From a virus: 44,549 nucleotides of DNA. The notes below the pieces were generated by a model. That model was not told where the DNA came from. It was given only the letters and a program-made list of their open reading frames with translations, and did no database searches. The stretch covers positions 1-44,549 of the IMG/VR virus record IMGVR_UViG_3300033273_000505. The stretch is one strand, 5' to 3'. Every line of letters starts with the position of its first letter. The stretch's first letter is position 1. Position numbers and translations under genes: made by a program. This document shows, one piece after another, positions 1-7,991 of the stretch.

Positions 1-774
1 ACAAAAGCAATGATGCAGTTTGTAAAACTTGCTGCAAAATGGGGTGCAAAACCTATTAAAACGAAAGGTAAGCATTTGAAGTTCAGAGATGCTTTAGGAC
101 ATCAAATCAGTGCCCCTAAAACATCATCAGACTGGCGTGCATTAAAGAACTTTAAGTCTGAACTCAGGAACCGTGGTTTCAAAGAACAAGAGACAGTTAA
201 GAAGGTAAAAGATGCCCTGGTAAACAATACGAAAACAACACAATTACAACCAAGTAGAAAGACAGCAAATCAGCAAACAACATTCAAAAAATTTACACAA
301 AAGTATCAACCTAATGTTCAAGGTCCGAAGAAACCTAATGTAACCAAGGCAGAGTTAAGTAAGAGAGAGTTGGAGAATAGAATGGAGAAAGGATATAAAC
401 AATCAATTAAAGATATGCCAGCAGATGTAAAGTATGACCTTGCAAATAAGGTATTGAAAGACATTAGAAAGAGTAGAGTACAGGAAGGGGTTCATCCCCT
501 TGAGGTGATTCACACCGAACAGATGGTAGTACCTAGAGGATTAAAGAAGAAGAATCCATTGATGAATGTAAAGACAGAAATGGAGTTATTGAAGAGATTA
601 TCTAATAGAAAAGCATTTTATGATGCAGCAAGAACAGGTAAACCAATGTATCCATTCTCCGAAGATAATAAGCACAGAGATGCTAAGTTAAACTATCAGT
701 ATAAAGAGGTAACTAATCCTAAGAGACCAGAAGATCCTATTAGAGCATTGAAGTTAAAGAAAGGAATGGCATAG
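1..774 (+). CDS. Hypothetical protein with HicA-like N-terminus, 5' end cut by window
   Basis: The frame is open to the first base, so the gene may begin upstream; the first visible ATGs are at 10 and 13 with no ribosome-binding site in view. The first ~55 visible residues follow the pattern of the HicA/dsRBD-like fold: a helix (KLAAKWG), a strand with KGKHLKF, a strand with QISAPKT, then a helix ALKNFKSELRNRGF. HicA toxins carry a catalytic His in a KGSHH context, and KGKH places a His there. The remaining ~200 residues are Lys-rich, probably largely helical, and not recognised. At over 250 residues it is far longer than HicA (~60-80), so a free toxin is unlikely; an RNA- or DNA-binding phage protein is more plausible. 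No HicB-like antitoxin is adjacent. The fold assignment is inference from pattern only. Confidence 0.7.
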   Translation, partial: TKAMMQFVKLAAKWGAKPIKTKGKHLKFRDALGHQISAPKTSSDWRALKNFKSELRNRGFKEQETVKKVKDALVNNTKTTQLQPSRKTANQQTTFKKFTQKYQPNVQGPKKPNVTKAELSKRELENRMEKGYKQSIKDMPADVKYDLANKVLKDIRKSRVQEGVHPLEVIHTEQMVVPRGLKKKNPLMNVKTEMELLKRLSNRKAFYDAARTGKPMYPFSEDNKHRDAKLNYQYKEVTNPKRPEDPIRALKLKKGMA

Positions 775-777
775 TAA

Positions 778-984
778 ATGAAAGAGATTCTTCGTATTTG
801 GAAATACTCTCTGGGTAGTTTCAGTGATAGTAAAACAGAGAAATATGATAACTGGATTGCGTTAGTTAGAACAGTTATCTTTGTCTCTTATATGATCACT
901 AACTCCTTCATTGTTGCAGGGGTAGTAAGACACTGGGATGCTGATAAATGTGTAACGGTTGATACAGAACTAATTAAAAAATAG
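778..984 (+). CDS. Small single-pass membrane protein (68 aa)
   Basis: The ATG lies 3 bases after the preceding stop, so the gene is probably cotranscribed with it. The N-terminus (MKEILRIWKYSLGSF) is amphipathic and basic. Residues ~26-50 form one hydrophobic segment (ALVRTVIFVSYMITNSFIVAGVV) that could span a membrane, followed by a short polar tail with one Cys. Small proteins of this shape are common in T4-like cyanophages, but I know no function for them. It is followed directly by a terminator-like hairpin. Confidence 0.75.
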   Translation: MKEILRIWKYSLGSFSDSKTEKYDNWIALVRTVIFVSYMITNSFIVAGVVRHWDADKCVTVDTELIKK

Positions 985-1021
985 GTTCTTAATATAGAAA
1001 TAAATATAGAACTGTTTTTTT
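985..1021 (+). terminator. Rho-independent-type terminator
   Basis: GTTC (985-988) pairs with GAAC (1009-1012) and TATA pairs with TATA inside, with a short bulge. A run of seven T follows at 1015-1021. It lies immediately after the 778-984 gene. An AATAAATA late-promoter-like box (999-1006) lies in the loop, probably by chance. Confidence 0.55.
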
Positions 1022-1102
1022 ATTGTTAAAGTAACTGCTGAGTATCTGGGGAGTATCTACAGAGTAACTTGGTGGTTATTTGGTCTCTTATACTTGTAGA
1101 AA

Positions 1103-1202
1103 GGTGCCCAGGTCTTGTGCTTATATCTTATGAAAACCTTCTAGGTCATTGTGAGCTTAGCGAGCGTATCATAAGACGCGCAGTCTGTCAACCCACGGGC
1201 AC
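1103..1202 (+). ncRNA. Candidate structured RNA (branched, ~100 nt)
   Basis: No supported ORF covers 1022-1203. Three nested stems can be drawn by eye: GTGCCC 1104-1109 with GGGCAC 1197-1202; TTGTGC 1115-1120 with GCGCAG 1178-1183 (two G-U pairs); TCTTATGA 1126-1133 with TCATAAGA 1169-1176 (8 bp, perfect). Inside the last stem are two small hairpins, ACCT/AGGT (1136-1146) and GCTT/GAGC (1155-1165), giving a three-way junction. A TATACT box at 1089-1094 would start transcription at ~1101, just before the first stem. It lacks tRNA features: there is no T-loop, and the length and arm spacing are wrong. No T-run follows the 3' side. The sense strand is assumed from the TATACT box and neighbouring genes. 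I do not recognise it as a known RNA family. Confidence 0.4.
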
Positions 1203-1227
1203 GGCAAAATGTTAGCAGAACTACACA

Positions 1228-1487
1228 ATCTCGACGAGAAATGTATAAATAAATGTTATGAATCTCGACGAGAATCATATCTAGACGAGACACACATTTC
1301 GACTAGATTTGCATCTCGACGATATATCTGCTACAATACACAGGAATCTCGACGAGGATTATGTACGACGACTACGATCTCGACTATTCTTACACACCAG
1401 AATACACATACGATCTCGACGAGACTTATGACATGTGGGTGCAATCATATGCACATACACATTTAGATGACATGGATCTCGACGAGG
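1228..1487. repeat. Array of nine palindromic elements, consensus ATCTCGACGAGA
   Basis: Copies start at 1228, 1262, 1279, 1296, 1313, 1346, 1377, 1413 and 1476. The core TCTCG-A-CGAGA is an inverted repeat. Copies at 1262, 1279, 1296 and 1313 are spaced exactly 17 bases apart, and 1228 lies two such units before 1262. The first six copies fall in different reading frames, so they are not a protein repeat. The last three are in frame in a small ORF and read Asp-Leu-Asp, followed by Glu in two of them. Copies at 1279, 1296, 1313 and 1377 carry substitutions in one arm. The copies at 1346 and 1476 share a longer identity that continues into GGATTATG. Confidence 0.85.
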
Positions 1488-1543
1488 ATTATGCACACAA
1501 TACGCAAGATTATGATGCGCTTGCGTATAAGCATTATGCATGA
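1361..1543 (+). CDS. Small Asp/Tyr-rich acidic protein (60 aa)
   Basis: The ORF begins MYDDYDLDYSYTPEYTYD and contains three Asp-Leu-Asp units (two followed by Glu) encoded by copies of the palindromic element. It is strongly acidic and Tyr-rich, probably disordered, with no recognisable domain. The ATG is preceded by GAGG at 1354-1357, a possible ribosome-binding site that itself belongs to a repeat copy. The C-terminus (QDYDALAYKHYA) looks like ordinary coding sequence and the Asp/Tyr codon use is coherent, so I favour a real gene. The alternative is an accidental ORF over a repeat array. Confidence 0.5.
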   Translation: MYDDYDLDYSYTPEYTYDLDETYDMWVQSYAHTHLDDMDLDEDYAHNTQDYDALAYKHYA

Positions 1544-1549
1544 TATAAT
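1521..1549 (+). promoter_or_regulatory. Sigma-70-type promoter for the 1574 gene
   Basis: TTGCGT at 1521-1526 and a perfect TATAAT at 1544-1549 are separated by 17 bases. The predicted start is about 18 bases before a purine-rich site (AGAGGA, 1564-1569) and the ATG at 1574. It overlaps the end of the preceding small ORF. Confidence 0.65.
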
Positions 1550-1573
1550 CTAGTTCACATACACAGAGGAATC

Positions 1574-1753
1574 ATGTACGCCGCTCACATGCTTGCACAA
1601 AAGCGCAGAGTAAGTGTCACACTCGATATCGAGTGTTATGATGACATGTATCTCCAAGAAGTATTAGCAGATCTCGATTGGAAAGAACTACTAGACCTTG
1701 AAGGTGATGAGAATGTCGACATTACCGTCAAGGAACGTGATGTCATCTGGTAG
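1574..1753 (+). CDS. Small acidic hypothetical protein (59 aa)
   Basis: The ORF opens MYAAHMLAQKRRVSVTLDIE and ends in VKERDVIW. The pattern (basic N-terminus, a beta-strand-like RRVSVTLDIE, an acidic helix with LADLDWKELLDLEGDE, then a second strand) suggests a compact alpha/beta fold. It has a good promoter (TATAAT 1544-1549) and a purine-rich ribosome-binding site 5 bases before the ATG. A perfect 18-bp palindrome lies inside the gene at 1619-1636. Function unknown; I believe similar short proteins occur in cyanophages. Confidence 0.75.
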   Translation: MYAAHMLAQKRRVSVTLDIECYDDMYLQEVLADLDWKELLDLEGDENVDITVKERDVIW

Positions 1754-1778
1754 TGTGCCAGTTTGATTAGTGTCACAA

Positions 1779-1818
1779 ACCCCCTTGCGGTTCGTTCCGT
1801 TTGGGGGTATTGTTATCT
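1779..1818 (+). promoter_or_regulatory. Terminator hairpin fused to promoter -10
   Basis: ACCCCC (1779-1784) pairs with GGGGGT (1803-1808), and CGG/CCG pair inside with a TTCGTT loop. The -10-like TTATCT (1813-1818) follows 4 bases later. The downstream AAGTTCAAAAAA matches the start of the transcript at other junctions in this block. No good -35 is at the right distance; the hairpin arm occupies that place. Confidence 0.5.
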
Positions 1819-1836
1819 TAAGTTCAAAAAAGTTCC

Positions 1837-2040
1837 ATGGTTTTCGTTACTTCAAAGAAGAACGGTTGCACTTATACTTTGGATGGAAATAATGGCGTGG
1901 TTTTGATGTATCATCCGTTGTATTCTAACGGAGATATTGAGACAAACCGTGGCGCTTATGAGTATGTTGAGTGGGATTATTTGGATGATGAAGATCTCAT
2001 TGAAGCGGAGCGTTGTTATAACTTACTTCGTGCCGCCTGA
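1837..2040 (+). CDS. Small hypothetical protein (67 aa)
   Basis: The ORF starts MVFVTSKKNGCTYTLDGNNG and continues with beta-strand-like segments (GVVLMYHPLYSNGD) and an acidic helix (WDYLDDEDLIEAERCYNLLRA). No family recognised. The ATG is 19 bases after the -10-like TTATCT, with no Shine-Dalgarno sequence between, as with most genes of this block. The stop is followed after 5 bases by the TGGCACAG motif found at other gene ends here. Confidence 0.7.
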   Translation: MVFVTSKKNGCTYTLDGNNGVVLMYHPLYSNGDIETNRGAYEYVEWDYLDDEDLIEAERCYNLLRAA

Positions 2041-2064
2041 GGAACTGGCACAGACCCCCTTGCG

Positions 2065-2093
2065 TTGAACCCCTGGACGGGGTATTGTTATCT
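2065..2093 (+). promoter_or_regulatory. Promoter overlapping a hairpin (terminator-promoter hybrid)
   Basis: TTGAAC (2065-2070), a 17-base spacer and TTATCT (2088-2093). The spacer contains a hairpin ACCCC-TGGAC-GGGGT (2069-2083). TGGCACAG lies upstream at 2046-2053, just after the preceding gene. The promoter serves the gene at 2112. Confidence 0.55.
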
Positions 2094-2111
2094 CAAGTTC
2101 AAAAAACACAA

Positions 2112-2249
2112 ATGGATTTCGACACTTTCGACACTGACATCTTCGCTGAGATTAACGACATGGAAGGTGAAATCTTTGACATCCCTGAGATGCAAGATGA
2201 GAAGAAATTTGACCTGGAAGGTTACATTAACGGGAACATTGATTATTGA
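2112..2249 (+). CDS. Very small acidic protein (45 aa)
   Basis: The ORF opens MDFDTFDTDIFAEINDMEGE and ends in LEGYINGNIDY. It is strongly acidic with no Cys and no recognised domain. The ATG follows a TTGAAC/TTATCT promoter by 18 bases, with no Shine-Dalgarno. Being this short, it rests on the promoter context and on a coherent acidic composition. It could bind a basic or nucleic-acid-binding partner as a DNA mimic, but nothing beyond charge supports this. Confidence 0.55.
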   Translation: MDFDTFDTDIFAEINDMEGEIFDIPEMQDEKKFDLEGYINGNIDY

Positions 2250-2252
2250 CAT

Positions 2253-2280
2253 TCTGCCGTAATTTTCCCACTAACTAACA
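2253..2280. repeat. 28-bp direct repeat, copy 1
   Basis: Identical to 2662-2689. This copy lies between the 45-aa gene and the gene at 2289. It includes TCTGCCGTAATTTTCCC and CACTAACTAACA. In the second copy the same bases form the end of a coding sequence. Confidence 0.9.
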
Positions 2281-2288
2281 ATCAACCC

Positions 2289-2492
2289 ATGCAATTCCAA
2301 GTCACTGAGATTGAGTTTGATTTTGAAGATTCTGCGTCCTATGATAAGGAACCAGGATATTTTCAATCAATTATTGATGAAACATTAGAAGGAGTTTGGG
2401 AAGCATCTGACGAGGAAGATCTCATCGAAGAGATCACATGTGCGACAGGTTGGTGCATTAAATCTATTGACTACCATATCGTCCTTAAGTAA
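2289..2492 (+). CDS. Small acidic hypothetical protein (67 aa)
   Basis: The ORF opens MQFQVTEIEFDFEDSASYD, then an amphipathic helix (YFQSIIDETLEGVWEA), an acidic stretch (SDEEDLIEEI) and a C-terminal TCATGWCIKSIDYHIVLK with two Cys. The beta-alpha-beta layout and the CATGWCIKSIDY ending fit a conserved small protein I believe to be common in T4-like cyanophages; its function is unknown to me. No separate promoter is obvious, so it may be read with the 2112 gene through the 28-bp repeat. Confidence 0.75.
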   Translation: MQFQVTEIEFDFEDSASYDKEPGYFQSIIDETLEGVWEASDEEDLIEEITCATGWCIKSIDYHIVLK

Positions 2493-2513
2493 CACAAACT
2501 CACCAACACTTTT

Positions 2514-2687
2514 ATGATGGACCGACTTGAAATGTTGACTGCTCGTGAACAATTGATGGGGGACATTGATTCTATTGTTGAATCATATCAATGTGATGAA
2601 AACTTTGACATTAACGATTGTGATGACCGTGATGATTTAATCCGTGTCCTATGTGATGCCGTCTGCCGTAATTTTCCCACTAACTAA
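2514..2687 (+). CDS. Small acidic hypothetical protein (57 aa), C-terminus within a repeat
   Basis: Start ATGATG at 2514/2517; the second Met is equally possible. The product begins MMDRLEMLTAREQLMGDID and is helical and acidic, with a region rich in Asp and Cys. Its last eight codons (VCRNFPTN) and the stop lie in the 28-bp direct repeat also present at 2253-2280 outside genes. The natural C-terminus may therefore have been replaced by recombination at the repeat. No function recognised. Confidence 0.6.
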   Translation: MMDRLEMLTAREQLMGDIDSIVESYQCDENFDINDCDDRDDLIRVLCDAVCRNFPTN

Positions 2688-2689
2688 CA
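2662..2689. repeat. 28-bp direct repeat, copy 2
   Basis: Identical to 2253-2280. Here it overlaps the last codons and stop of the 57-aa gene. Just downstream the base composition changes to G+C-rich, so this copy sits at the edge of a foreign-looking segment. Confidence 0.9.
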
Positions 2690-2691
2690 CA

Positions 2692-2716
2692 AACTGGTCG
2701 CCGCGGCCGACCAGTT
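2692..2716. terminator. Perfect 9-bp hairpin at the edge of the G+C-rich segment
   Basis: AACTGGTCG (2692-2700) pairs with CGACCAGTT (2708-2716) around a 7-base loop CCGCGGC. It directly follows the 28-bp repeat and may end transcription of the preceding small genes. There is no T-run, so it could instead be a recombination or protein-binding site. TTGACA at 2715-2720 overlaps its right arm, but no -10 lies at the right distance. Confidence 0.5.
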
Positions 2717-2723
2717 GACAAGG

Positions 2724-2767
2724 TGGCACAGCATCGGTTGCAATCTGCTGGATTCTGTGCCTATAAT
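2724..2767 (+). promoter_or_regulatory. Promoter embedded in a GGCACAG/CTGTGCC hairpin
   Basis: GGCACAG (2725-2731) pairs with CTGTGCC (2755-2761). A -35-like TTGCAA (2738-2743) is in the loop, and a perfect TATAAT (2762-2767) abuts the right arm, with an 18-base spacer. ACTTCAGTTCAAAC follows the -10, as at 3392 and 4803. This promoter lies inside the longest open frame, which shows that the zincin gene starts downstream at 2798. Confidence 0.65.
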
Positions 2768-2797
2768 GACTTCAGTTCAAACAACCGCAACGGACCC

Positions 2798-3136
2798 ATG
2801 CTGCTCACCTCAGGACAAAAGCAACGCCCTCGTCTGGCGCAGCAGGTCTACCGCTTCATGCTGGATCAGGAACCGCTGTTAGGGGCCGCGGCGATCACGG
2901 TTCACCACCGTCGCCTGACCTCTGAGGGTGTGGTCGGTTGGCAGCTGCAGGAGGATGACCTGGAGTTCTTGATCGACATTGAACGCGACCTGCCCCGACA
3001 GGAGTACATCCTGACCCTGATTCATGAACTCGTCCACTGCCGCCAAACCCTGGCAGGTATCATGGATGAGGAGCAACGGGAGACGGAAGCATACGGTTTG
3101 GAAACTGTCTACGCTGCCCGCTTCGCCGCTGCCTGA
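2798..3136 (+). CDS. Small HExxH zinc metallopeptidase-like protein (112 aa)
   Basis: The frame is open from 2723, but the promoter at 2738-2767 lies within it, so the ATG at 2798 is the likely start. His76-Glu77-Leu-Val-His80 (HELVHCRQ) is a zincin motif in a predicted helix; Glu97 in ETEAYGLE is a good candidate for the third zinc ligand. This is the layout of minimal gluzincins and of small phage metallopeptidase-like proteins. No signal peptide. The gene is G+C-rich and uses CTG and GCC codons, unlike the structural genes, suggesting acquisition from a high-G+C picocyanobacterium or a related phage. Substrate unknown; it may be a protease or a non-catalytic zinc protein. Confidence 0.75.
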   Translation: MLLTSGQKQRPRLAQQVYRFMLDQEPLLGAAAITVHHRRLTSEGVVGWQLQEDDLEFLIDIERDLPRQEYILTLIHELVHCRQTLAGIMDEEQRETEAYGLETVYAARFAAA

Positions 3137-3141
3137 CCCCT

Positions 3142-3147
3142 TATACT
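3142..3147 (+). promoter_or_regulatory. -10 box for the 3171 gene
   Basis: TATACT at 3142-3147, followed by GATTTCAATTCAGACAA, a diverged form of the element downstream of the other -10 boxes. It starts 6 bases after the preceding stop. I see no convincing -35. Confidence 0.45.
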
Positions 3148-3170
3148 GATTTCAATTCAGACAACCGACC

Positions 3171-3374
3171 ATGTTCAATATCAACCCCATTGGCAGCGGC
3201 GCTGTCTCCCTGATGACGGTGGATCCCATCGCTGGTAGCGTTCGCGTTCGCTTCCGACATGGCACTAAGGTCTATCGCTTCAATGGCATCTCCCGCCGTG
3301 CCATCCTCTCGCTGCTGGTATGGCAGGATCGTAGCTTGGGCCAGTGGGTGAACCGTCACTGCCTCGCTCGCTGA
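3171..3374 (+). CDS. KTSC-like domain protein (67 aa)
   Basis: Starts MFNINPIGSGAVSLMTVDP. The segment SVRVRFRHGTKVYRFNGISRRAILSLL followed by SLGQWVNRHCL matches the KTSC-domain pattern: a strand with a hydrophobic/basic alternation, G-x-x-Y-x-F, a helix with L-L, then a small-residue stretch and N-x-x-I/C. The domain fills the whole protein, which is usual. KTSC domains are small RNA-metabolism-linked or unknown modules often found in phages. The G+C content is high, like its neighbours. The family match is by eye. Confidence 0.65.
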   Translation: MFNINPIGSGAVSLMTVDPIAGSVRVRFRHGTKVYRFNGISRRAILSLLVWQDRSLGQWVNRHCLAR

Positions 3375-3384
3375 GCGTCCCATC

Positions 3385-3397
3385 CTGTGCCTATAAT
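3385..3397 (+). promoter_or_regulatory. CTGTGCC + TATAAT promoter for the 3420 gene
   Basis: CTGTGCC (3385-3391) directly abuts TATAAT (3392-3397), followed by ACTTCAGTTCAAAC. This is the right half of the hybrid element seen at 2755-2767. The left arm (GGCACAG) is absent here, so no hairpin forms. Confidence 0.6.
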
Positions 3398-3419
3398 GAC
3401 TTCAGTTCAAACGAAACCG

Positions 3420-3590
3420 ATGTTCGCCACCCTCTCCAACGACGAAGTGCTCTCCCTGCTGGATGACGCCAACGTGAACCACGATGACGTGCAGTATGAC
3501 GCCTGCTATGACGAACTCGTCAAGCGTGACGCCCTGCCCTACTACCTACAGGATGACTTCGAGTGCTACGCCGACGATGAGGACGCCTGA
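3420..3590 (+). CDS. Small acidic hypothetical protein (56 aa)
   Basis: The frame is open from 3387, but the TATAAT at 3392-3397 lies within it; the ATG at 3420 (MFATLSNDEVLSLLDDANV) is 22 bases after the -10 and is the likely start. The product is acidic and mostly helical with a C-terminal DDFECYADDEDA. G+C-rich. No ribosome-binding site is visible. No family recognised. The stop is followed within 5 bases by the TGGCACA motif. Confidence 0.65.
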   Translation: MFATLSNDEVLSLLDDANVNHDDVQYDACYDELVKRDALPYYLQDDFECYADDEDA

Positions 3591-3604
3591 CGAAGTGGCA
3601 CAAG

Positions 3605-3638
3605 ACCCCTTGCCCTGTTCGTGGGTGGGGGGTTATCT
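3605..3638 (+). promoter_or_regulatory. Hairpin-promoter hybrid for the MutH-like gene
   Basis: ACCCC (3605-3609) pairs with GGGGT (3629-3633), and CCC (3613-3615) with GGG (3623-3625). TTGCCC (3610-3615), 17 bases, then TTATCT (3633-3638) form a promoter within it. TGGCACA lies upstream at 3596-3602. The leader to the ATG at 3662 is about 16 bases and lacks a Shine-Dalgarno. Confidence 0.6.
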
Positions 3639-3661
3639 TAGATTCAGTTGAGAGACACACC

Positions 3662-4249
3662 ATGAAACTCACCACCCTTCAGGTTGCTGCCAAACTTAAG
3701 ACTACTGACTTTAGTGTGTTTGACAAACCAGGCACAAACAAGGGCGCTCGTGGTCAACTACTGGAAATCGCGTTAGGTGTGCCTAATTCCAGTGATTTGA
3801 CTGACCTTGCTGACGGTGAAATCAAGACTTTCACCGTGGGTGAGTCAATCGCCGTGACACAGTTGAAGCACTGCCTGGCAGAAATCATTGAAGACCAAGT
3901 GTCATTCAAGGACAGCAAAGTGGGTGCTAAACTGAAGCAAACTGTTTATGTTGGTTTCACCCGTGGCAACGATTATGTGGGGACTGAAGTATTGAATGAG
4001 GAAACTCACCCCGAACATTATCAGGAACTGGCAGAGGATTATGACTACATCTGCACTGCAATTCGTGCTGCATTTGAATCTGAAACCCAACTGACTACCA
4101 TCACAGGACCTAACAAACTTCTTCAGATTCGCACCAAAGCGTCTAAAACAAACGGTGCCTATGTTCCTTTGACCTTTGCAGGTTGCACCCTTAAAGATAA
4201 AGGAATGGCGTTCTACTTGTGCGGACGTTTCGGTAAAGAAGTGGTGTGA
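3662..4249 (+). CDS. MutH/Sau3AI-family endonuclease (195 aa)
   Basis: Residues 27-57 carry the family signature: KGARGQLLE with Glu35, Asp48, and GEIKT with Glu53 and Lys55. This gives the E...D...ExK catalytic set of the PD-(D/E)xK fold as in MutH (Glu56, Asp70, Glu77, Lys79) and Sau3AI. The length is near that of MutH (~229 aa). MutH and Sau3AI act at GATC; whether this protein does cannot be read from sequence. No methyltransferase, MutS or MutL gene is in the window, so it is an orphan nuclease. It may degrade host DNA, exclude other phages or process phage DNA. It has its own promoter and lies two genes before an ArdA-like gene. Confidence 0.72.
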   Translation: MKLTTLQVAAKLKTTDFSVFDKPGTNKGARGQLLEIALGVPNSSDLTDLADGEIKTFTVGESIAVTQLKHCLAEIIEDQVSFKDSKVGAKLKQTVYVGFTRGNDYVGTEVLNEETHPEHYQELAEDYDYICTAIRAAFESETQLTTITGPNKLLQIRTKASKTNGAYVPLTFAGCTLKDKGMAFYLCGRFGKEVV

Positions 4250-4299
4250 CAGTCGACAAGGTGGCACAGGGTCGACCTCAAAGCAACGGACCCCATGCT

Positions 4300-4305
4300 T
4301 ATAAT
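4300..4305 (+). promoter_or_regulatory. -10 box giving a leaderless transcript
   Basis: TATAAT at 4300-4305, only 6 bases before the ATG at 4312. TG two bases upstream of the box is reminiscent of an extended -10. I see no good -35. A start at the usual distance would fall on or next to the A of the ATG. Confidence 0.55.
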
Positions 4306-4311
4306 AGACCC

Positions 4312-4545
4312 ATGAACAAAACCAACCTTTCCGAATCCTCCTTCTACATCCGTCGCACTTGGACGACGTTCTCAGGTTCCGTCGTTAAGATGGACCACGT
4401 TGGACCCTACCATGAGGGTCAGGAGTACGCTGTCGCAATGCAGCGCAAACATGACATGGACCGACAGGTTCCTGCCACTGAACAGATTACCAAGTGGGAA
4501 TGGGTTGACGGAGTGACCGCCATTGCCGACCTGGTGTTCGGTTGA
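4312..4545 (+). CDS. Hypothetical protein (77 aa), probably leaderless
   Basis: The frame is open from 4246, but the TATAAT at 4300-4305 lies inside it, so the ATG at 4312 (MNKTNLSESSFYIRRTWTTF) is chosen. The N-terminal half looks beta-rich (FYIRRTWTTFSGSVVKMDHVG), followed by EYAVAMQRKHDMD and a C-terminal WEWVDGVTAIADLVFG. No family recognised. The upstream part contains GTCGAC twice around the TGGCACAG motif, another potential hairpin. Confidence 0.65.
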   Translation: MNKTNLSESSFYIRRTWTTFSGSVVKMDHVGPYHEGQEYAVAMQRKHDMDRQVPATEQITKWEWVDGVTAIADLVFG

Positions 4546-4550
4546 GGAAG

Positions 4551-4593
4551 TGGCACAGAACCGGTTGATTTCTCCTGGATTCTGTGCCATATT
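4551..4593 (+). promoter_or_regulatory. Promoter embedded in a 10-bp hairpin
   Basis: TGGCACAGAA (4551-4560) pairs perfectly with TTCTGTGCCA (4580-4589). TTGATT (4565-4570) is in the loop, and CATATT (4588-4593) overlaps the right arm, with a 17-base spacer. The left arm starts 5 bases after the preceding stop. This is the clearest example of the hybrid element in the block. Confidence 0.65.
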
Positions 4594-4599
4594 AAAAGC

Positions 4600-4788
4600 A
4601 TGAAAGAAACGACCATGACTCTGGAAACCGCAAACCAAATTTGGGAGGACTGCTACGGTGACCCCACCGCTAGCAAGTGGGGAGACTACACGACCGCCCA
4701 ACGGTTGGAAGCAATCCGCGTCCGTGATGAGGCACACAACGGACCTAAAGGACAGTGGGGAATCTGGCACATCAGCGACCGCGACTGA
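4600..4788 (+). CDS. Small hypothetical protein (62 aa)
   Basis: Two starts are possible: ATG 4600 (MKETTM), which would be almost leaderless relative to the CATATT at 4588-4593, or ATG 4615, which would leave a ~15-base leader. The product is helical (LETANQIWEDCYGD, YTTAQRLEAIRVRDEAHNG) and ends QWGIWHISDRD. No family recognised. The next gene's -10 (4803) begins 15 bases after its stop. Confidence 0.65.
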   Translation: MKETTMTLETANQIWEDCYGDPTASKWGDYTTAQRLEAIRVRDEAHNGPKGQWGIWHISDRD

Positions 4789-4802
4789 CCCCACCGACCC
4801 CC

Positions 4803-4808
4803 TATAAT
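4803..4808 (+). promoter_or_regulatory. -10 box for the ArdA-like gene
   Basis: TATAAT at 4803-4808 followed by AACTTCAGTTCAAAC, nearly identical to the elements at 2762 and 3392. It lies inside the longest open frame, showing that translation starts later, at 4839. Confidence 0.6.
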
Positions 4809-4838
4809 AACTTCAGTTCAAACAAACCACTTCAAACC

Positions 4839-5306
4839 ATGCTCAAAGGAACCGAACTTCTGGACACCATCCGCACCATGGAGACTGCCTCACGAACCGA
4901 ACAGTGCCTCGCCTGCGGTTACGTTCGGGAGAATGGCAAACCCGCATTCACTGCATTTTACGAAGCAATTATGGACGCCCGTGGTATCACTACCGCAGCA
5001 GTTGAGAAAGAAGAACTTAAGGAAGAATATCCTGTCCAAAAGGACATTCTGACCGAACTGTTGGAAGACTACGACGCCGATGCAATTAAGGCATTCATTG
5101 AACTCTACGGTGAGGAAGAATTGGAGAACTTTGAAGACGCTTACCAAGGCGAAATGTCTGGCGCTGAGTTTGCAGAACAGTTCACGACTGGTTTCTACTG
5201 CGTGGACATTCCTTCCTTTGTTTGTGTTGACTGGAATGCAACTTGGGACCAACTTTCCTATGACTATGATGAGCAGGACGGTTACATTTTCTCCCGCCAC
5301 TGGTAA
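4839..5306 (+). CDS. ArdA-like antirestriction protein (155 aa)
   Basis: Start ATG 4839 is chosen because a TATAAT (4803-4808) lies inside the longer open frame. The C-terminal half contains FEDAYQGE (residues 98-105) followed by EFAEQF, then a hydrophobic strand, VDWNATWDQLSYDY and a terminal GYIFSRHW. This matches the pattern of ArdA-type DNA-mimic proteins (F-x-D/E-AYQGE, then D/N-W and a V/I-F-R ending). The N-terminal part has CLACGYVRENGKPAFTAFYE and differs from classical ArdA. The protein is strongly acidic, as expected of a mimic of bent B-DNA that binds type I restriction enzymes. Length is close to ArdA (~165 aa). The match is by eye; a DNA mimic aimed at another protein is the alternative. 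Confidence 0.65.
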   Translation: MLKGTELLDTIRTMETASRTEQCLACGYVRENGKPAFTAFYEAIMDARGITTAAVEKEELKEEYPVQKDILTELLEDYDADAIKAFIELYGEEELENFEDAYQGEMSGAEFAEQFTTGFYCVDIPSFVCVDWNATWDQLSYDYDEQDGYIFSRHW

Positions 5307-5318
5307 GTGACACTTAAG

Positions 5319-5358
5319 GTGTGCCGCCTCACAAGGTGGCACACTCCCCATCGTGGGG
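5319..5358 (+). terminator. Double hairpin after the ArdA-like gene
   Basis: GTGTGCCGCC (5319-5328) pairs with GGTGGCACAC (5335-5344) with one G-U, loop TCACAA. A second hairpin, CCCC-ATCGT-GGGG (5346-5358), follows. No T-run. The right arm contains the TGGCACA motif that recurs at gene ends here. The next -10 box starts 17 bases later. Confidence 0.55.
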
Positions 5359-5374
5359 GGCACCTCTGACCCCT

Positions 5375-5380
5375 TATAAT
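5375..5380 (+). promoter_or_regulatory. -10 box for the 5404 gene
   Basis: TATAAT at 5375-5380, then AAACACAGTTCAAACAAA, sharing the CAGTTCAAAC of the other promoters. The ATG at 5404 has no Shine-Dalgarno. Confidence 0.55.
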
Positions 5381-5403
5381 AAACACAGTTCAAACAAAGG
5401 CAC

Positions 5404-5619
5404 ATGACCACCGCAACCGCCAACCTGATCGCCATCGCTTCGGAGTTGCAGGCAGCAGGGAAGGAAGTTAAGGTCACCGTTCTCCGCACTGCTCACGGAA
5501 CCAAGGCAAACCGCTACGCTGATCGCATCCGTGGGGGTTCCACCCGTGTCCGCACTGGTGCCGGTTCCCGCTCCGTGCATCAGAGCACCAAAGCAACCGC
5601 CCTGGGTGACGTTCGCTGA
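5404..5619 (+). CDS. Small basic hypothetical protein (71 aa)
   Basis: Begins MTTATANLIAIASELQAAGK; the N-terminal helix is followed by a strand (EVKVTVLRTAH) and a Gly/Arg/Ser-rich basic tail (RIRGGSTRVRTGAGSRSVHQ). The basic tail could bind nucleic acid or a host protein. The gene is G+C-rich, unlike the late genes. It starts 23 bases after a -10 box and ends one base before the motif GTGGCACAGG. No family recognised. Confidence 0.6.
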   Translation: MTTATANLIAIASELQAAGKEVKVTVLRTAHGTKANRYADRIRGGSTRVRTGAGSRSVHQSTKATALGDVR

Positions 5620-5792
5620 AGTGGCACAGGGGTGCTTGACGGCAGTGGTGGGTGCGTGGTAGGCAGTGCCGCCGCCCGCCGCGTCCCCGCGCCGTGGCGC
5701 GTGTATATAAAACTCCTAGGTACCATAAATCTATAAAGTCTTGCTTTCGGCAGATATTTTTATAACTCTTAGTTTTTCTATATAAAGCAAAA
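5620..5792 (+). other. Intergenic region with abrupt composition change
   Basis: The first ~80 bases are extremely G+C-rich and contain TGGCACAG (5622-5629) and a perfect inverted repeat CGCGCC-GT-GGCGCG (5688-5701). From about 5702 the sequence becomes A+T-rich, with several TATAAA-like boxes before the ATG at 5793. I see no gene. The switch at ~5702 probably marks the right edge of the G+C-rich accessory genes. Confidence 0.6.
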
Positions 5793-5987
5793 ATGAGAAA
5801 CGGAATACACTGTATGCAAAAAAATCCCGGAGAAAATTTTACGACCATAGAGGTTGATCCTGTAACTGGGGAGTATTATATTACGTTACCTGAGTGGGTC
5901 ATATCAGAGTACGGGTGGTATGAGGGCACTGAGATAAACATGGAGGTTGATGGTGATTGTATTGTAGTTACGGAATTCCGTAACTGA
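5793..5987 (+). CDS. AbrB/MazE-like swapped-hairpin DNA-binding protein (64 aa)
   Basis: Start ATG 5793, or ATG 5814 (MQKNPGENFTTIEVDP), which may fit the domain better. The body reads as the AbrB/SpoVT fold: strand TTIEVDPVTGEYYITLP, then EWVISEYGWYEGTEINMEV (the usual L-P-x-x-h-h-x-x-h-G-W-x-x-G-D/T-x-h), then a strand CIVVTEF. Such small proteins are transition-state-type regulators or antitoxins of MazE type; no toxin gene is beside it. In cyanobacteria and their phages AbrB-like proteins may affect transcription. Upstream A+T-rich sequence probably carries its promoter. Confidence 0.7.
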   Translation: MRNGIHCMQKNPGENFTTIEVDPVTGEYYITLPEWVISEYGWYEGTEINMEVDGDCIVVTEFRN

Positions 5988-6020
5988 ACCCGTAAGGGTG
6001 AGATAACTGAGGCCAATCGG

Positions 6021-6049
6021 TAGACAATCATCACGTCTCATAGTATAAT
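6021..6049 (+). promoter_or_regulatory. Sigma-70-type promoter for the glycosyltransferase gene
   Basis: TAGACA (6021-6026), 17 bases, TATAAT (6044-6049). The leader to the ATG at 6088 is about 32 bases and, unlike the accessory genes upstream, lacks the CAGTTCAAAC element. Confidence 0.65.
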
Positions 6050-6087
6050 TACTATTGAATCGATTCACATTCAAATTTGAAAATGTT

Positions 6088-6843
6088 ATGGCAAAAGGAT
6101 TTACAGTAAAAGCAAAAACTCCCACTGTGAGCAAAGAACCAGAGTGGGACTATGCGAAAGCGCGTGAGATGGTAAAAGGAAAGACCGTTGTCTTCTGTTT
6201 ACCAGGGCGTGGAGTATCATATACGTATCTCAAAAATTTTGTACAATTGTGTTTTGACCTTGTGCAGCATGGTGCAAGCATTCAAATTTCACAAGATTAT
6301 AGTTCTATGGTGAACTTTGCACGTTGTAAGTGTTTAGGTGCAAATGTTCTGAGAGGACCTGACCAGAAACCATGGGATGGAAAGTTGAAGTATGATTATC
6401 AATTGTGGATTGATAGTGATATTGTGTTTAACAGTGAGAAGTTTTATCAGTTGATCTTGATGGACAAAGATATTGCAAGTGGTTGGTATTGTACCGAAGA
6501 CGGTCAAACCACCAGTGTTGCACATTGGATGGAGGAAGATGATTTCCGAAATAATGGTGGTGTAATGAACCATGAAACGATTGAGAGTATTTCAAAGCGT
6601 CGTAAACCATTCACTGTGGACTATGCAGGTTTTGGATGGTTGCTCATCAAAAATGGTGTATTTGAGCACAGTGAGATGAAGTATCCATGGTTTGCACCGA
6701 AGATGCAAGTCTTTGAATCTGGTGAAGTACAGGACATGTGTGGAGAGGATGTAAGTTTCTGTCTGGATGCAAAAGAGGCAGGATTTGAGATTTGGTGCGA
6801 TCCTCGTATCAGAGTGGGGCATGAAAAAACTCGCGTGATCTGA
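6088..6843 (+). CDS. GT-A-fold glycosyltransferase-like protein (251 aa)
   Basis: The frame is open from 6055, but ATG 6088 (MAKGFTVKAKTP) is the natural start downstream of the promoter. GKTVVFCLPGRGVSYTYLKNF resembles the nucleotide-sugar-binding start of GT-A enzymes. LWIDSDIVF supplies the metal-binding DxD motif (Asp109-Ser-Asp111). GEDVSFCLDAKEAGFEIWCDP with a following GHEKT resembles the acceptor/catalytic ED motif and the C-terminal metal-ligand His of family-2-type enzymes. Cyanophages often carry such genes; possible roles are modification of virion proteins, DNA bases or host surface sugars. The stop overlaps the next start. Confidence 0.75.
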   Translation: MAKGFTVKAKTPTVSKEPEWDYAKAREMVKGKTVVFCLPGRGVSYTYLKNFVQLCFDLVQHGASIQISQDYSSMVNFARCKCLGANVLRGPDQKPWDGKLKYDYQLWIDSDIVFNSEKFYQLILMDKDIASGWYCTEDGQTTSVAHWMEEDDFRNNGGVMNHETIESISKRRKPFTVDYAGFGWLLIKNGVFEHSEMKYPWFAPKMQVFESGEVQDMCGEDVSFCLDAKEAGFEIWCDPRIRVGHEKTRVI

Positions 6844-7010
6844 TGATGGCACAGGAGTCTTATACAATTCTCCATGAGGGTCAAGTACTTGCAGAGGGCT
6901 TGACCAAAGATGAATACTTTGATAAACTTATGGACCTAGCAGAGGACTTCTACTCTTCTGGGTCACCGAATCCCTCGGAAATTGAAACAAAAATTGTAGT
7001 TGAGGATTAA
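6843..7010 (+). CDS. Small hypothetical protein (55 aa)
   Basis: ATG 6843 overlaps the preceding TGA by one base; the next ATG (6846) is equally possible. The product reads MMAQESYTILHEGQVLAEGL, then an acidic helix (KDEYFDKLMDLAEDFYSSG), then PNPSEIETKIVVED. The beta-hairpin/helix/strand layout fits a compact fold. I believe similar small proteins are frequent beside late genes of T4-like cyanophages; no function is known to me. Translational coupling to the glycosyltransferase is likely. Confidence 0.75.
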   Translation: MMAQESYTILHEGQVLAEGLTKDEYFDKLMDLAEDFYSSGSPNPSEIETKIVVED

Positions 7011-7012
7011 TT

Positions 7013-7165
7013 ATGGCAGCACGTTCCAAAGTCGGTCTCGTTAAGGATGGGTTTACTCCTAGGAAGCCCAAGAAGTCTCGTCAGGGCGCAGGGAAGAACA
7101 CAAAATATGCAGCGACTTCTCGCAATAAGGCAAAGAAAGTGTATCGCGGGCAAGGCAAGCGTTGA
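7013..7165 (+). CDS. Very small basic protein (50 aa)
   Basis: Starts 2 bases after the previous stop. The product begins MAARSKVGLVKDGFTPRKPK and continues KSRQGAGKNTKYAATSRNKAKKVYRGQGKR: Lys/Arg/Gly-rich, without Cys or acidic clusters, probably disordered and able to bind nucleic acid. It resembles a short basic protein that I recall in many cyanophages. A strong terminator follows directly. Confidence 0.75.
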   Translation: MAARSKVGLVKDGFTPRKPKKSRQGAGKNTKYAATSRNKAKKVYRGQGKR

Positions 7166-7170
7166 TACAT

Positions 7171-7193
7171 GGGGGTCTTCGGACCCCTTTTTT
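7171..7193 (+). terminator. Rho-independent terminator
   Basis: GGGGTC (7172-7177), loop TTCG, GACCCC (7182-7187), then six T (7188-7193). A textbook intrinsic terminator. It separates the accessory block from the late structural module. Confidence 0.95.
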
Positions 7194-7196
7194 GTC

Positions 7197-7204
7197 AATA
7201 AATA
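7197..7204 (+). promoter_or_regulatory. T4-type late promoter
   Basis: AATAAATA matches the late box of T4-like cyanophages (NATAAATA; TATAAATA in T4). It lies just after the terminator and before the first gene of the structural module. Confidence 0.6.
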
Positions 7205-7233
7205 TCGGTAAGGGATAGCAACCCCTCTAAAAG

Positions 7234-7257
7234 TTCTGATTTCTTGTAAATCAGGAG
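7234..7257 (+). promoter_or_regulatory. Leader hairpin covering the ribosome-binding site
   Basis: CTGATTT (7236-7242) pairs perfectly with AAATCAG (7248-7254), loop CTTGT. T7235-G55 wobble and T7234-A56 pairs extend it over AGGAG (7253-7257), the Shine-Dalgarno of the gene at 7263. A weaker AGGG/CCCT stem lies upstream. The element is in the leader of the late transcript. Confidence 0.55.
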
Positions 7258-7262
7258 CTAAA

Positions 7263-7550
7263 ATGGGCAATTCACCTGTAGATAGAGATTCAAACTACAT
7301 GAGAGAGATGTGGGGCACCACTCGTCTTGTGACAGATTACATTAGAAATGAAAAAATGCATGATTTTTTAGACAATTTGGGTAATCATCAGCATCAAAAG
7401 ATGCTTCGTGAGATTGCAAATGATGATTTAACACCTAAAAAGCATGATTTTGCGACTCAGAACGAACTTCATGAGAAAATTCGTAATGATGAGGACTATG
7501 ATGACTGGGATTATGGTACAGAACCCACTTATGGTAAGATTTCTGGGTAG
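7263..7550 (+). CDS. Hypothetical protein (95 aa), first gene of the late module
   Basis: Preceded by AGGAG at 7253-7257 with proper spacing, inside a hairpin. The product starts MGNSPVDRDSNYMREMWGTT, is helical in the middle (LVTDYIRNEKMHDFLDNLG, HQKMLREIAND) and acidic at the C-terminus (RNDEDYDDWDYGTEPTYG). No Cys, no membrane segment, no recognised family. Its place between a late promoter and gp25 suggests a virion or assembly role, but this is inference. Confidence 0.75.
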   Translation: MGNSPVDRDSNYMREMWGTTRLVTDYIRNEKMHDFLDNLGNHQHQKMLREIANDDLTPKKHDFATQNELHEKIRNDEDYDDWDYGTEPTYGKISG

Positions 7551-7554
7551 TAGG

Positions 7555-7562
7555 TATAAATA
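7555..7562 (+). promoter_or_regulatory. T4-type late promoter before gp25
   Basis: TATAAATA, identical to the T4 late consensus, 24 bases before the gp25 ATG at 7587. Confidence 0.75.
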
Positions 7563-7586
7563 AATTCAGAAAAATCTACCCATACA

Positions 7587-7988
7587 ATGCCGACACAAAG
7601 GGTTTCTAGAGCATTTAAGGACATTAGTTTTGCTTTCGATCCACATCCTGTGACGAAAGACCTTCCTGTCTTGACAAATGAGCGTGCAATCGTTCGATCT
7701 GTACGTAATTTGGTTGAAACCATTCCAACTGAACGGTTTTTTAACTCTTTGGTCGGCACAGATATTCGTAAAAGTCTATTTGGATTCGTTGATTTTGCTA
7801 CTGCAACGATTATCGAAGACCAAATTCGTAATACAATCGAATATTTTGAGGATCGTGTTGAAAATGTACGCATTGATGTTGATCCACAACCCGATCTAAA
7901 CGCATTTGATGTGACAGTTTACTTCGATATTGTAGGACAAGATTTTCCACCACAAGCCTTTTCGTTCATACTAGAGGCAACGCGATAA
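7587..7988 (+). CDS. 25: Baseplate wedge subunit gp25
   Basis: At 133 aa it matches T4 gp25 (132 aa), the lysozyme-like-fold protein that joins gp6 and gp53 at the wedge and nucleates sheath assembly. Visible family features are the N-terminal RAFKDISFAFDPHPVTKDL, followed by the segment AIVRSVRNLVETIPTERFFNSLVGTDI and the C-terminal strands VENVRIDVDPQPDLNAFDVTVYFDI. In the family, the ERFF/GTDIRKSLF stretch forms the EPR-like core. It has its own late promoter; gp6 starts 4 bases after the stop, the usual neighbour in T4-like cyanophages. Confidence 0.93.
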   Translation: MPTQRVSRAFKDISFAFDPHPVTKDLPVLTNERAIVRSVRNLVETIPTERFFNSLVGTDIRKSLFGFVDFATATIIEDQIRNTIEYFEDRVENVRIDVDPQPDLNAFDVTVYFDIVGQDFPPQAFSFILEATR

Positions 7989-7991
7989 AAA

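What the first reader, a model, noticed from the sequence alone, without database searches (positions are those of the whole stretch)
2041..5640. Promoters built into hairpins at the ends of preceding small genes
At 2724-2767 and 4551-4593 an arm with GGCACAG begins soon after a gene, the matching CTGTGCC abuts or overlaps the next -10 box, and the -35 lies in the loop. At 1779-1818, 2065-2093 and 3605-3638 a CCCC/GGGG hairpin takes the same place. TGGCACA recurs seven times (2046, 2724, 3596, 4262, 4551, 5337, 5622), usually within a few bases of a stop. One element may thus end one gene and start the next, making each small gene a self-contained unit. I do not know this arrangement as a described feature.
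Basis: partly seen in the sequence, partly recalled or inferred. Interest (0 to 1): 0.7.

Follow-up and report, generated by a model that had tools for sequence, protein, structure and literature searches.

The report
Cyanophage operator–terminator–promoter gene-boundary elements
Between many small genes of these ocean and lake viruses of cyanobacteria sits one compact DNA element that appears to end the gene before it and switch on the gene after it, with a conserved docking site for a still unknown control protein; similar end-and-start elements are known from other T4-like viruses, but this nested form, found here in all ten other cyanophage genomes checked (only two copies in one of them), looks like a new variant.

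Summary
The recurrence is real and larger than reported. In the window, 8 of 9 TG[G/T]CACA between 1700 and 5700 have a -10 box exactly 36-38 nt downstream (P about 1e-10). TGGCACA is the right half of a 24-bp inverted repeat, TGTG(A/C)CA(C/G)TTNANAAA(C/G)TGGCACA, centred near -53. The same architecture was found in all ten other cyanophage genomes scanned (2-23 palindromes each, 0-0.5 expected), marine and freshwater, but not in RB49, and as a full composite not in bacterial genomes except misbinned phage contigs. Between palindrome and -10 lies a hairpin whose sequence changes but whose pairing is kept (z -9 to -13), with the -35 box mostly in its loop, often a T-run, and stronger when a co-directional gene ends just upstream. 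The palindrome arms do not covary, so it reads as a protein site and the hairpin as a terminator. Composite terminator-promoters are described in T4-like phages (PeSLs); in RB49 the terminator precedes the -35 and no palindrome is seen. Verdict: real, new variant of a known kind. The binding protein and all RNA ends remain unmeasured.

The parts
1754..1777 (+). operator palindrome, site 1 (TGTGCCAGTTTGATTAGTGTCACA); stop TAG of ORF 1574-1753 abuts it
   Evidence: PSSM hit on both strands; sequence
1780..1807 (+). hairpin CCCCC...GGGGG, -35 region inside
   Evidence: -16.9 kcal/mol, z -3.4 against shuffles
1808..1813 (+). -10 box TATTGT of site 1 (next gene starts at 1837)
   Evidence: 37 nt from TGTCACA
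2029..2052 (+). operator, site 2; contains stop TGA of ORF 1837-2040
2069..2083 (+). small hairpin ACCCC/GGGGT, followed by ATTGTTATCT
   Evidence: terminator-like by pattern but not more stable than shuffles
2083..2088 (+). -10 box TATTGT, site 2 (next gene 2112-2249)
2707..2730 (+). operator, site 3 (GACCAGTTGACAAGGTGGCACA core)
2725..2761 (+). hairpin GGCACAG...CTGTGCC with -35 TTGCAA (2738-2743) in the loop
   Evidence: -15.5 kcal/mol, z -2.8; this pair is not conserved in relatives
2762..2767 (+). -10 box TATAAT, site 3 (gene 2798-3136)
3354..3397 (+). degenerate site 4: CGTCACT half and CCTGTGCCTATAAT -10 module (gene 3420-3590)
   Evidence: PSSM score 22; no unusual hairpin
3579..3602 (+). 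operator, site 5; contains stop TGA of ORF 3420-3590
3605..3633 (+). hairpin ACCCCTTGCCC/GGGTGGGGGGT, followed by TATCTTAG
   Evidence: -19.5 kcal/mol, z -3.1
3634..3639 (+). -10 box TATCTT, site 5 (gene 3662-4249)
4245..4268 (+). operator, site 6, best-scoring + strand operator in the window; contains stop TGA of ORF 3662-4249
   Evidence: PSSM 30.0
4300..4305 (+). -10 box TATAAT, site 6
   Evidence: 38 nt register
4534..4557 (+). operator, site 7 (weak left half); contains stop TGA of ORF ending at 4545
   Evidence: PSSM 14.1
4552..4588 (+). hairpin GGCACAGAACCGG.../...CCTGGATTCTGTGCC, -35 TTGATT in loop; -10 CATATT or TATTAA follows
   Evidence: -19.3 kcal/mol, z -4.9
4748..4771 (+). operator, site 8, inside the 3' end of gene 4600-4788; -10 TATAAT at 4803-4808 (gene 4839-5306)
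5320..5343 (+). operator, site 9; short hairpin CTCCCC/GGGGGG at 5344-5360; -10 TATAAT at 5375-5380 (gene 5404-5619)
   Evidence: hairpin not above shuffles
5622..5628 (+). TGGCACA after gene 5404-5619, no -10 in register: incomplete copy at the 3' edge of the GC-rich block

Best explanation
Each copy is a three-part gene-boundary element about 65-75 bp long. (1) A 24-bp palindrome, which often contains the stop codon of the preceding gene, is bound by a dimeric DNA-binding protein, probably an activator that touches RNA polymerase at a fixed distance. (2) A hairpin placed between the palindrome and the -10 box ends transcripts arriving from the preceding gene; its loop holds the -35 box and its T-run or the -10 box follows. 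(3) A host sigma-70 type -10 box starts the transcript of the next gene; the -10 box ends about 20-33 nt before the next ATG. Shown by sequence: the palindrome, its fixed register, the covarying hairpin, the T-runs, the dependence on an upstream gene and the spread among cyanophages. Inferred: protein binding, activation, termination, start sites and timing.
For: Register: TGGCACA to TATAAT is 36-38 nt in 194 of 220 pairs listed at 25-59 nt, and the variant TGTCACA, not used in the search, shows 27 at 36-38 nt against at most 3 at any other distance. Palindrome consensus and lack of arm covariation: variable positions pair less than expected, 27 vs 44.8, 29 vs 36.6 and 31 vs 40.8, the mark of a protein site and not of an RNA stem. 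Hairpin: swapping 5' arms among sites lowers stability strongly, z -11 to -13 (92 sites) and z -9 to -10 in 87 sites chosen without using that region. T-rich after strong stems 19/47, A-rich before 0/47. T-run hairpins 21/126 with a gene ending upstream, 1/47 without; stems of 6 or more 33% vs 13%; fold energies p 0.007. The -35 hexamer falls in the loop for 77 of 114 positions. Palindromes per genome: S-CRM01 23, S-SSM7 18, P-SSM2 18, S-PM2 15, S-SKS1 11, Syn9 9, Sf-CH1b 9, S-CAM3 8, Bellamy 6, S-SM2 2; random 0-0.5. Full composite in 84,980 bacterial and archaeal genomes: 3 contigs, all with cyanophage proteins.
Against: No RNA data were available. About three quarters of copies have no hairpin of 6 or more perfect pairs, and in the window only four of nine are unusually stable, none with a classical T-run; so termination may be partial or absent at many copies. 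The -35 box is weak (TTG in 33 of 87 copies, 10.6 expected from neighbouring positions). No binding protein was found; the early core gene looked at (DUF7717) has no DNA-binding signature. Host chromosomes could not be searched for the palindrome alone.
Confidence: 0.7

Rival explanations
1. The palindrome is a repressor operator, or an operator that shuts early genes off later, with the same terminator and promoter. A dimer bound at -65 to -42 would block polymerase or loop between the many copies.
For: Palindromes of this size are typical of repressors; many copies lie in one block. Some operators lack a good -10.
Against: The site lies upstream of the -35 box and is held within 1-2 bp of one distance from the -10, which suits contact with polymerase; repressor sites usually overlap the promoter and vary in position (established knowledge). 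The weak -35 suits an activated promoter.
Confidence: 0.2
2. The palindrome is a host factor's site copied by the phage, so early phage genes are read by a host regulator.
For: Phages of marine and freshwater hosts share it, and early genes must be read with host proteins only.
Against: The full composite is absent from all cyanobacterial genomes of a one-genome-per-species collection. Palindrome-only use in hosts was not testable here. Known cyanobacterial boxes (NtcA GTA-N8-TAC, CRP TGTGA-N6-TCACA, Pho box) do not fit its spacing.
Confidence: 0.25
3. The hairpins do not terminate: they protect or process the 3' ends of read-through mRNA, or keep translation of the next gene closed on read-through RNA.
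For: Many covarying stems have no T-run, and some end flush against the -10 box.
Against: T-runs are one-sided and nearly confined to sites with a gene ending upstream; the hairpin lies far from the next ribosome site.
Confidence: 0.25
4. The elements are recombination cassettes and the regulatory signals merely supply homology for gene exchange (the mobile part of the PeSL idea).
For: Alignment ends between relatives lie within 40 nt of elements 33 times against 17 expected in S-SSM7.
Against: Alignment ends are as frequent at other gene starts (1.83 vs 1.77 per site in S-SSM7, 0.44 vs 1.10 in P-SSM2). The known 9.5-kb S-PM2 deletion does not end at elements.
Confidence: 0.1
5. The window's own hairpins are chance products of a GC-rich block in which TGGCACA and TGTGCC are both conserved for other reasons.
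For: The GGCACAG/CTGTGCC pair is not conserved as a pair; two of the listed hairpins equal shuffles; the block is about 50-56% GC.
Against: Sites 1771 and 3596 do not use that pair and exceed shuffles; family-wide covariation is strong.
Confidence: 0.3

Closest known systems
PeSLs (promoter-early stem-loops) of T4-like phages such as RB49/phi1, T4/PST, KVP40/nt-1
   Same: Composite stem-loop plus early promoter between small genes of plastic regions, many copies per genome (as described in PMC4503421 and PMC3950731; the original papers were not held, phage names from memory).
   Different: In RB49 the T-run terminator ends before the -35 box, in tandem, and TG[G/T]CACA with a -10 in register is absent. 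Here the terminator sits inside the promoter, with the -35 in its loop, behind a palindrome at fixed distance. Special exchange was not supported.
T4 middle promoters (MotA box, AsiA)
   Same: A sigma-70 -10 box with a weak -35 and an upstream activator site.
   Different: The site here is a palindrome at -65 to -42, not a box at -30; T4-like cyanophages lack motA and/or asiA (PMC5780444).
Inverted-repeat intergenic promoters of haloviruses HF2 and HGTV-1
   Same: Repeated promoter-bearing elements before small genes, with an inverted repeat in HGTV-1 (PMC8707807, PMC3950731).
   Different: Archaeal promoters, other sequence, no shared geometry tested.
Mycobacteriophage L5 stoperators
   Same: Many copies of a protein-binding site at gene boundaries.
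   Different: From memory: short asymmetric repressor sites of a temperate phage; here a palindrome tied to a -10 box in lytic phages.

Membership tests
PeSL (T4-like promoter-early stem-loop) | sigma-70 type promoter before a small gene of a plastic region | tested here: met
   -10 in fixed register; ATG of an ORF within 40 nt in 82% vs 22% of random places; small-gene blocks
PeSL (T4-like promoter-early stem-loop) | stem-loop that can terminate, joined to the promoter | tested here: met
   covariation z -9 to -13, one-sided T-runs; only by sequence
PeSL (T4-like promoter-early stem-loop) | terminator upstream of and separate from the -35, as seen in RB49 | tested here: not met
   RB49 examples L209, L216, L219, L226 against -35 in the loop here
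PeSL (T4-like promoter-early stem-loop) | element serves as a point of genetic exchange | tested here: inconclusive
   alignment ends not more frequent than at other gene starts
PeSL (T4-like promoter-early stem-loop) | measured termination and early transcription | not testable with these tools
   no RNA data
T4 MotA-dependent middle promoter | MotA box near -30 and motA/asiA genes | tested here: not met
   conserved element is a palindrome at -65 to -42; cyanophages lack motA and/or asiA (PMC5780444)
sigma-54 promoter (TGGCAC-N5-TTGC) | GG-N10-GC spacing | tested here: not met
   TGGCAC to TTG spacing is 8, and a TATAAT is held in register instead
CRP/NtcA-type operator | TGTGA-N6-TCACA or GTA-N8-TAC | tested here: not met
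   outer half-sites are 14 nt apart: TGTG(A/C)-N14-(G/T)CACA

The most novel reading that the evidence does not exclude
Kyanoviridae carry a family-wide early regulon: an unidentified, phage-encoded dimeric activator reads a 24-bp palindrome in up to about 20 composite elements per genome, each of which releases the incoming transcript at a terminator wrapped around the -35 box so that the same polymerase can restart at the next gene. This would be the missing counterpart of MotA/AsiA in cyanophages and a promoter geometry not described before.
Probability: 0.3. Interest if true: 0.8.

Novelty: new variant of a known kind. Interest (0 to 1): 0.62.

Why it matters
T4-like cyanophages lack motA and/or asiA (PMC5780444), so how they time their early and middle genes is open. 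A single searchable element marks gene boundaries in their most variable, least understood region, names a regulon, predicts where transcripts start and stop, and offers a bait for its protein. It also shows a natural design in which one 70-bp stretch serves as stop codon, operator, terminator and promoter. S-PM2 was said to lack the high density of such elements seen in other T4-likes (PMC4503421); 15 palindromes were found in it, and one stem-loop noted in that paper, 11369-11391, is the hairpin of a composite at 11364-11405.

Tried and rejected
GGCACAG/CTGTGCC as a conserved hairpin: rejected by an unbiased scan and the Syn30 relative. Exchange points: alignment-end test no better than other gene starts; S-PM2d deletion ends show no element or homology. 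sigma-54, CRP, NtcA readings: spacing wrong. Known RNA family: no Rfam match in window 1-8000. Regulator search: the conserved early proteins tested in S-SSM7 have no DNA-binding family; ten small core proteins are UvsY, a sigma-region-2 protein (gp55-like), RegA, Hsp20, MazG, sliding clamp and others, no candidate; the DUF7717 alignment shows no helix-turn-helix pattern by eye, so no structure was predicted. Window genes: PHROGs of unknown function or none, no Pfam match above its cut-off. Temporal class: the Syn9 transcriptome paper and both PeSL papers were not held, so whether a similar motif was reported there is unknown.
Full report
What the window is. The window is a 44.5-kb virus record of a T4-like cyanophage: its nearest relatives are Synechococcus and Prochlorococcus myoviruses. 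The block 1.5-5.7 kb is a run of small genes with no known function, GC-richer from about 2.5 to 6.0 kb.

Observation. TGGCACA occurs 20 times in the window against 6.1 expected, at all seven stated places plus 4765 and, reversed, 1754. The main regularity is not closeness to stops but register: of nine TG[G/T]CACA between 1700 and 5700, eight have a -10-like hexamer 36-38 nt downstream (P about 1e-10). In the window four hairpins are unusually stable (1771, 2724, 3596, 4551) and have the -35 region in the loop; those at 2046 and 5337 are not above shuffles.

The element in relatives. Distance to TATAAT is sharply 36-38 nt; the variant TGTCACA, not used in the search, shows the same peak. Aligning 92 dereplicated copies shows that TGGCACA is the right half of a 24-bp inverted repeat TGTG(A/C)CA(C/G)TTNANAAA(C/G)TGGCACA centred near -53 (counting the -10 as -12 to -7), and that the -10 is followed by an A-rich leader and usually an ATG at 20-33 nt. 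Both halves show the same degeneracy. Genome scans give 2 to 23 palindromes in ten cyanophages, freshwater S-CRM01 included, with 0-0.5 expected, and six in the 45 kb of P-HM2 read; none in the 30 kb of RB49 read. Whole-record pattern searches found copies in 12 of 16 records with zero reversed-pattern controls, and none in RB49. Among 84,980 bacterial and archaeal genomes the full composite was found on three contigs only, all carrying cyanophage-like proteins, so probably misbinned.

Two different constraints. The palindrome arms do not covary: where they vary, they pair less often than chance. The stretch between palindrome and -10 does the opposite: its sequence changes from copy to copy but pairing is kept. 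Shuffling 5' arms among copies gives z -11 to -13, and z -9 to -10 on a second set of 87 copies chosen by palindrome and -10 alone. Strong stems are followed by T-runs in 19 of 47 and preceded by A-runs in none. Clean examples: S-SSM7 39353 AGACCCCTTGCAGGGGTCTTTTTTTATTC-TATACT, P-SSM2 53932 ACCCCCTTTCAGGGGGTTTTTTATTGC-TATAAT, S-CRM01 82954 GGGAGGCGTAGCCCTCCCTTTTTTGTGT-TAGAAT. In front of orthologous DUF7717 genes the palindrome half and -10 stay while the hairpin sequence is wholly different.

Why a terminator. The hairpin lies upstream of the start of its own promoter, so the next gene's own transcript never contains it; only RNA coming from upstream can. Accordingly strong hairpins and T-runs are found where a co-directional gene ends just upstream (T-run 21/126 vs 1/47). 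The -35 hexamer falls mostly in the loop. Stop codons of the preceding gene lie inside the palindrome in 73 of 173 copies. That termination and restart may be coupled is inference; in vitro, E. coli polymerase can stay on DNA after intrinsic termination and restart at nearby promoters (PMC6978380).

What is wrong in the reading. GGCACAG/CTGTGCC is a meeting of two conserved sequences, not a conserved stem. Many elements head operons of 2-5 genes in S-SSM7. Exchange at the elements is not more frequent than at other gene starts.

Known relatives. Composite terminator-promoters called PeSLs are described for T4-like phages; I learned this through citing papers (PMC4503421, PMC3950731) since the originals were not held. 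RB49, read here, has T-run hairpins ending before TTGACA, so the cyanophage element is nested where the known one is tandem, and adds a palindrome. Two RB49 promoters have a stem in or across the spacer (L217, L224), so nesting is not wholly absent there. Whether the Syn9 transcriptome study already reported such a promoter motif could not be checked.

Verdict. A real, phage-specific composite element, best filed as a new variant of the PeSL kind. Shown: register, palindrome, covarying hairpin, context dependence, spread. Inferred: binding by a dimeric protein, activation, termination, start sites. Unknown: the protein and the timing. Scores: interest 0.62; confidence in the three-part reading 0.7, with the activator role less sure than the terminator-promoter role.

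Noticed in passing
S-SSM7 50843 (-); L031 738; L032 2223; L036 6262: A reverse-oriented copy of the element with a conserved start TATAATGC(C/T)CGCC(A/T)AGATGT(C/A)TATAAG and no evident ORF right behind it; possibly the promoter of a noncoding or antisense RNA.
   Followed up: no
P-SSM2 66342-66608 (L205 about 25340-25610): Three palindromes within 260 nt in a gap without annotated genes (66279-66679), some pointing against the genes, with the hairpin-like TTAGGCGGCACACCTAAG just after one -10; a similar AAGGTGTGCCGCCTCAC lies at window 5313-5332.
   Followed up: no
window 1232-1485: Many copies of CTCGACGAG or near it (ATCTCGACGAGA) in a stretch with overlapping short ORFs; purpose unknown.
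   Followed up: no
window 2253-2280 and 2662-2689: Identical 28-nt sequence TCTGCCGTAATTTTCCCACTAACTAACA at the ends of two neighbouring small genes.
   Followed up: no
window 2755-2784 and 3385-3410; L131 3208: A second recurring module, CCTGTGCCTATAATGACTTCAGTTCAAAC, joins the -10 and the leader in the GC-rich elements and occurs with variant operators such as (G/C)TGTCCAC.
   Followed up: partly
operator positions 8 and 17 (C/G) in all copies: The two C/G positions of the palindrome prefer the same letter on one strand (GG or CC) over a complementary pair, as if perfect symmetry were avoided.
   Followed up: partly
GTDB contigs L137, L138, L139: Contigs with cyanophage-like proteins binned into Flavobacteriales TMED113 and Proteobacteria TMED61 genomes.
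   Followed up: yes
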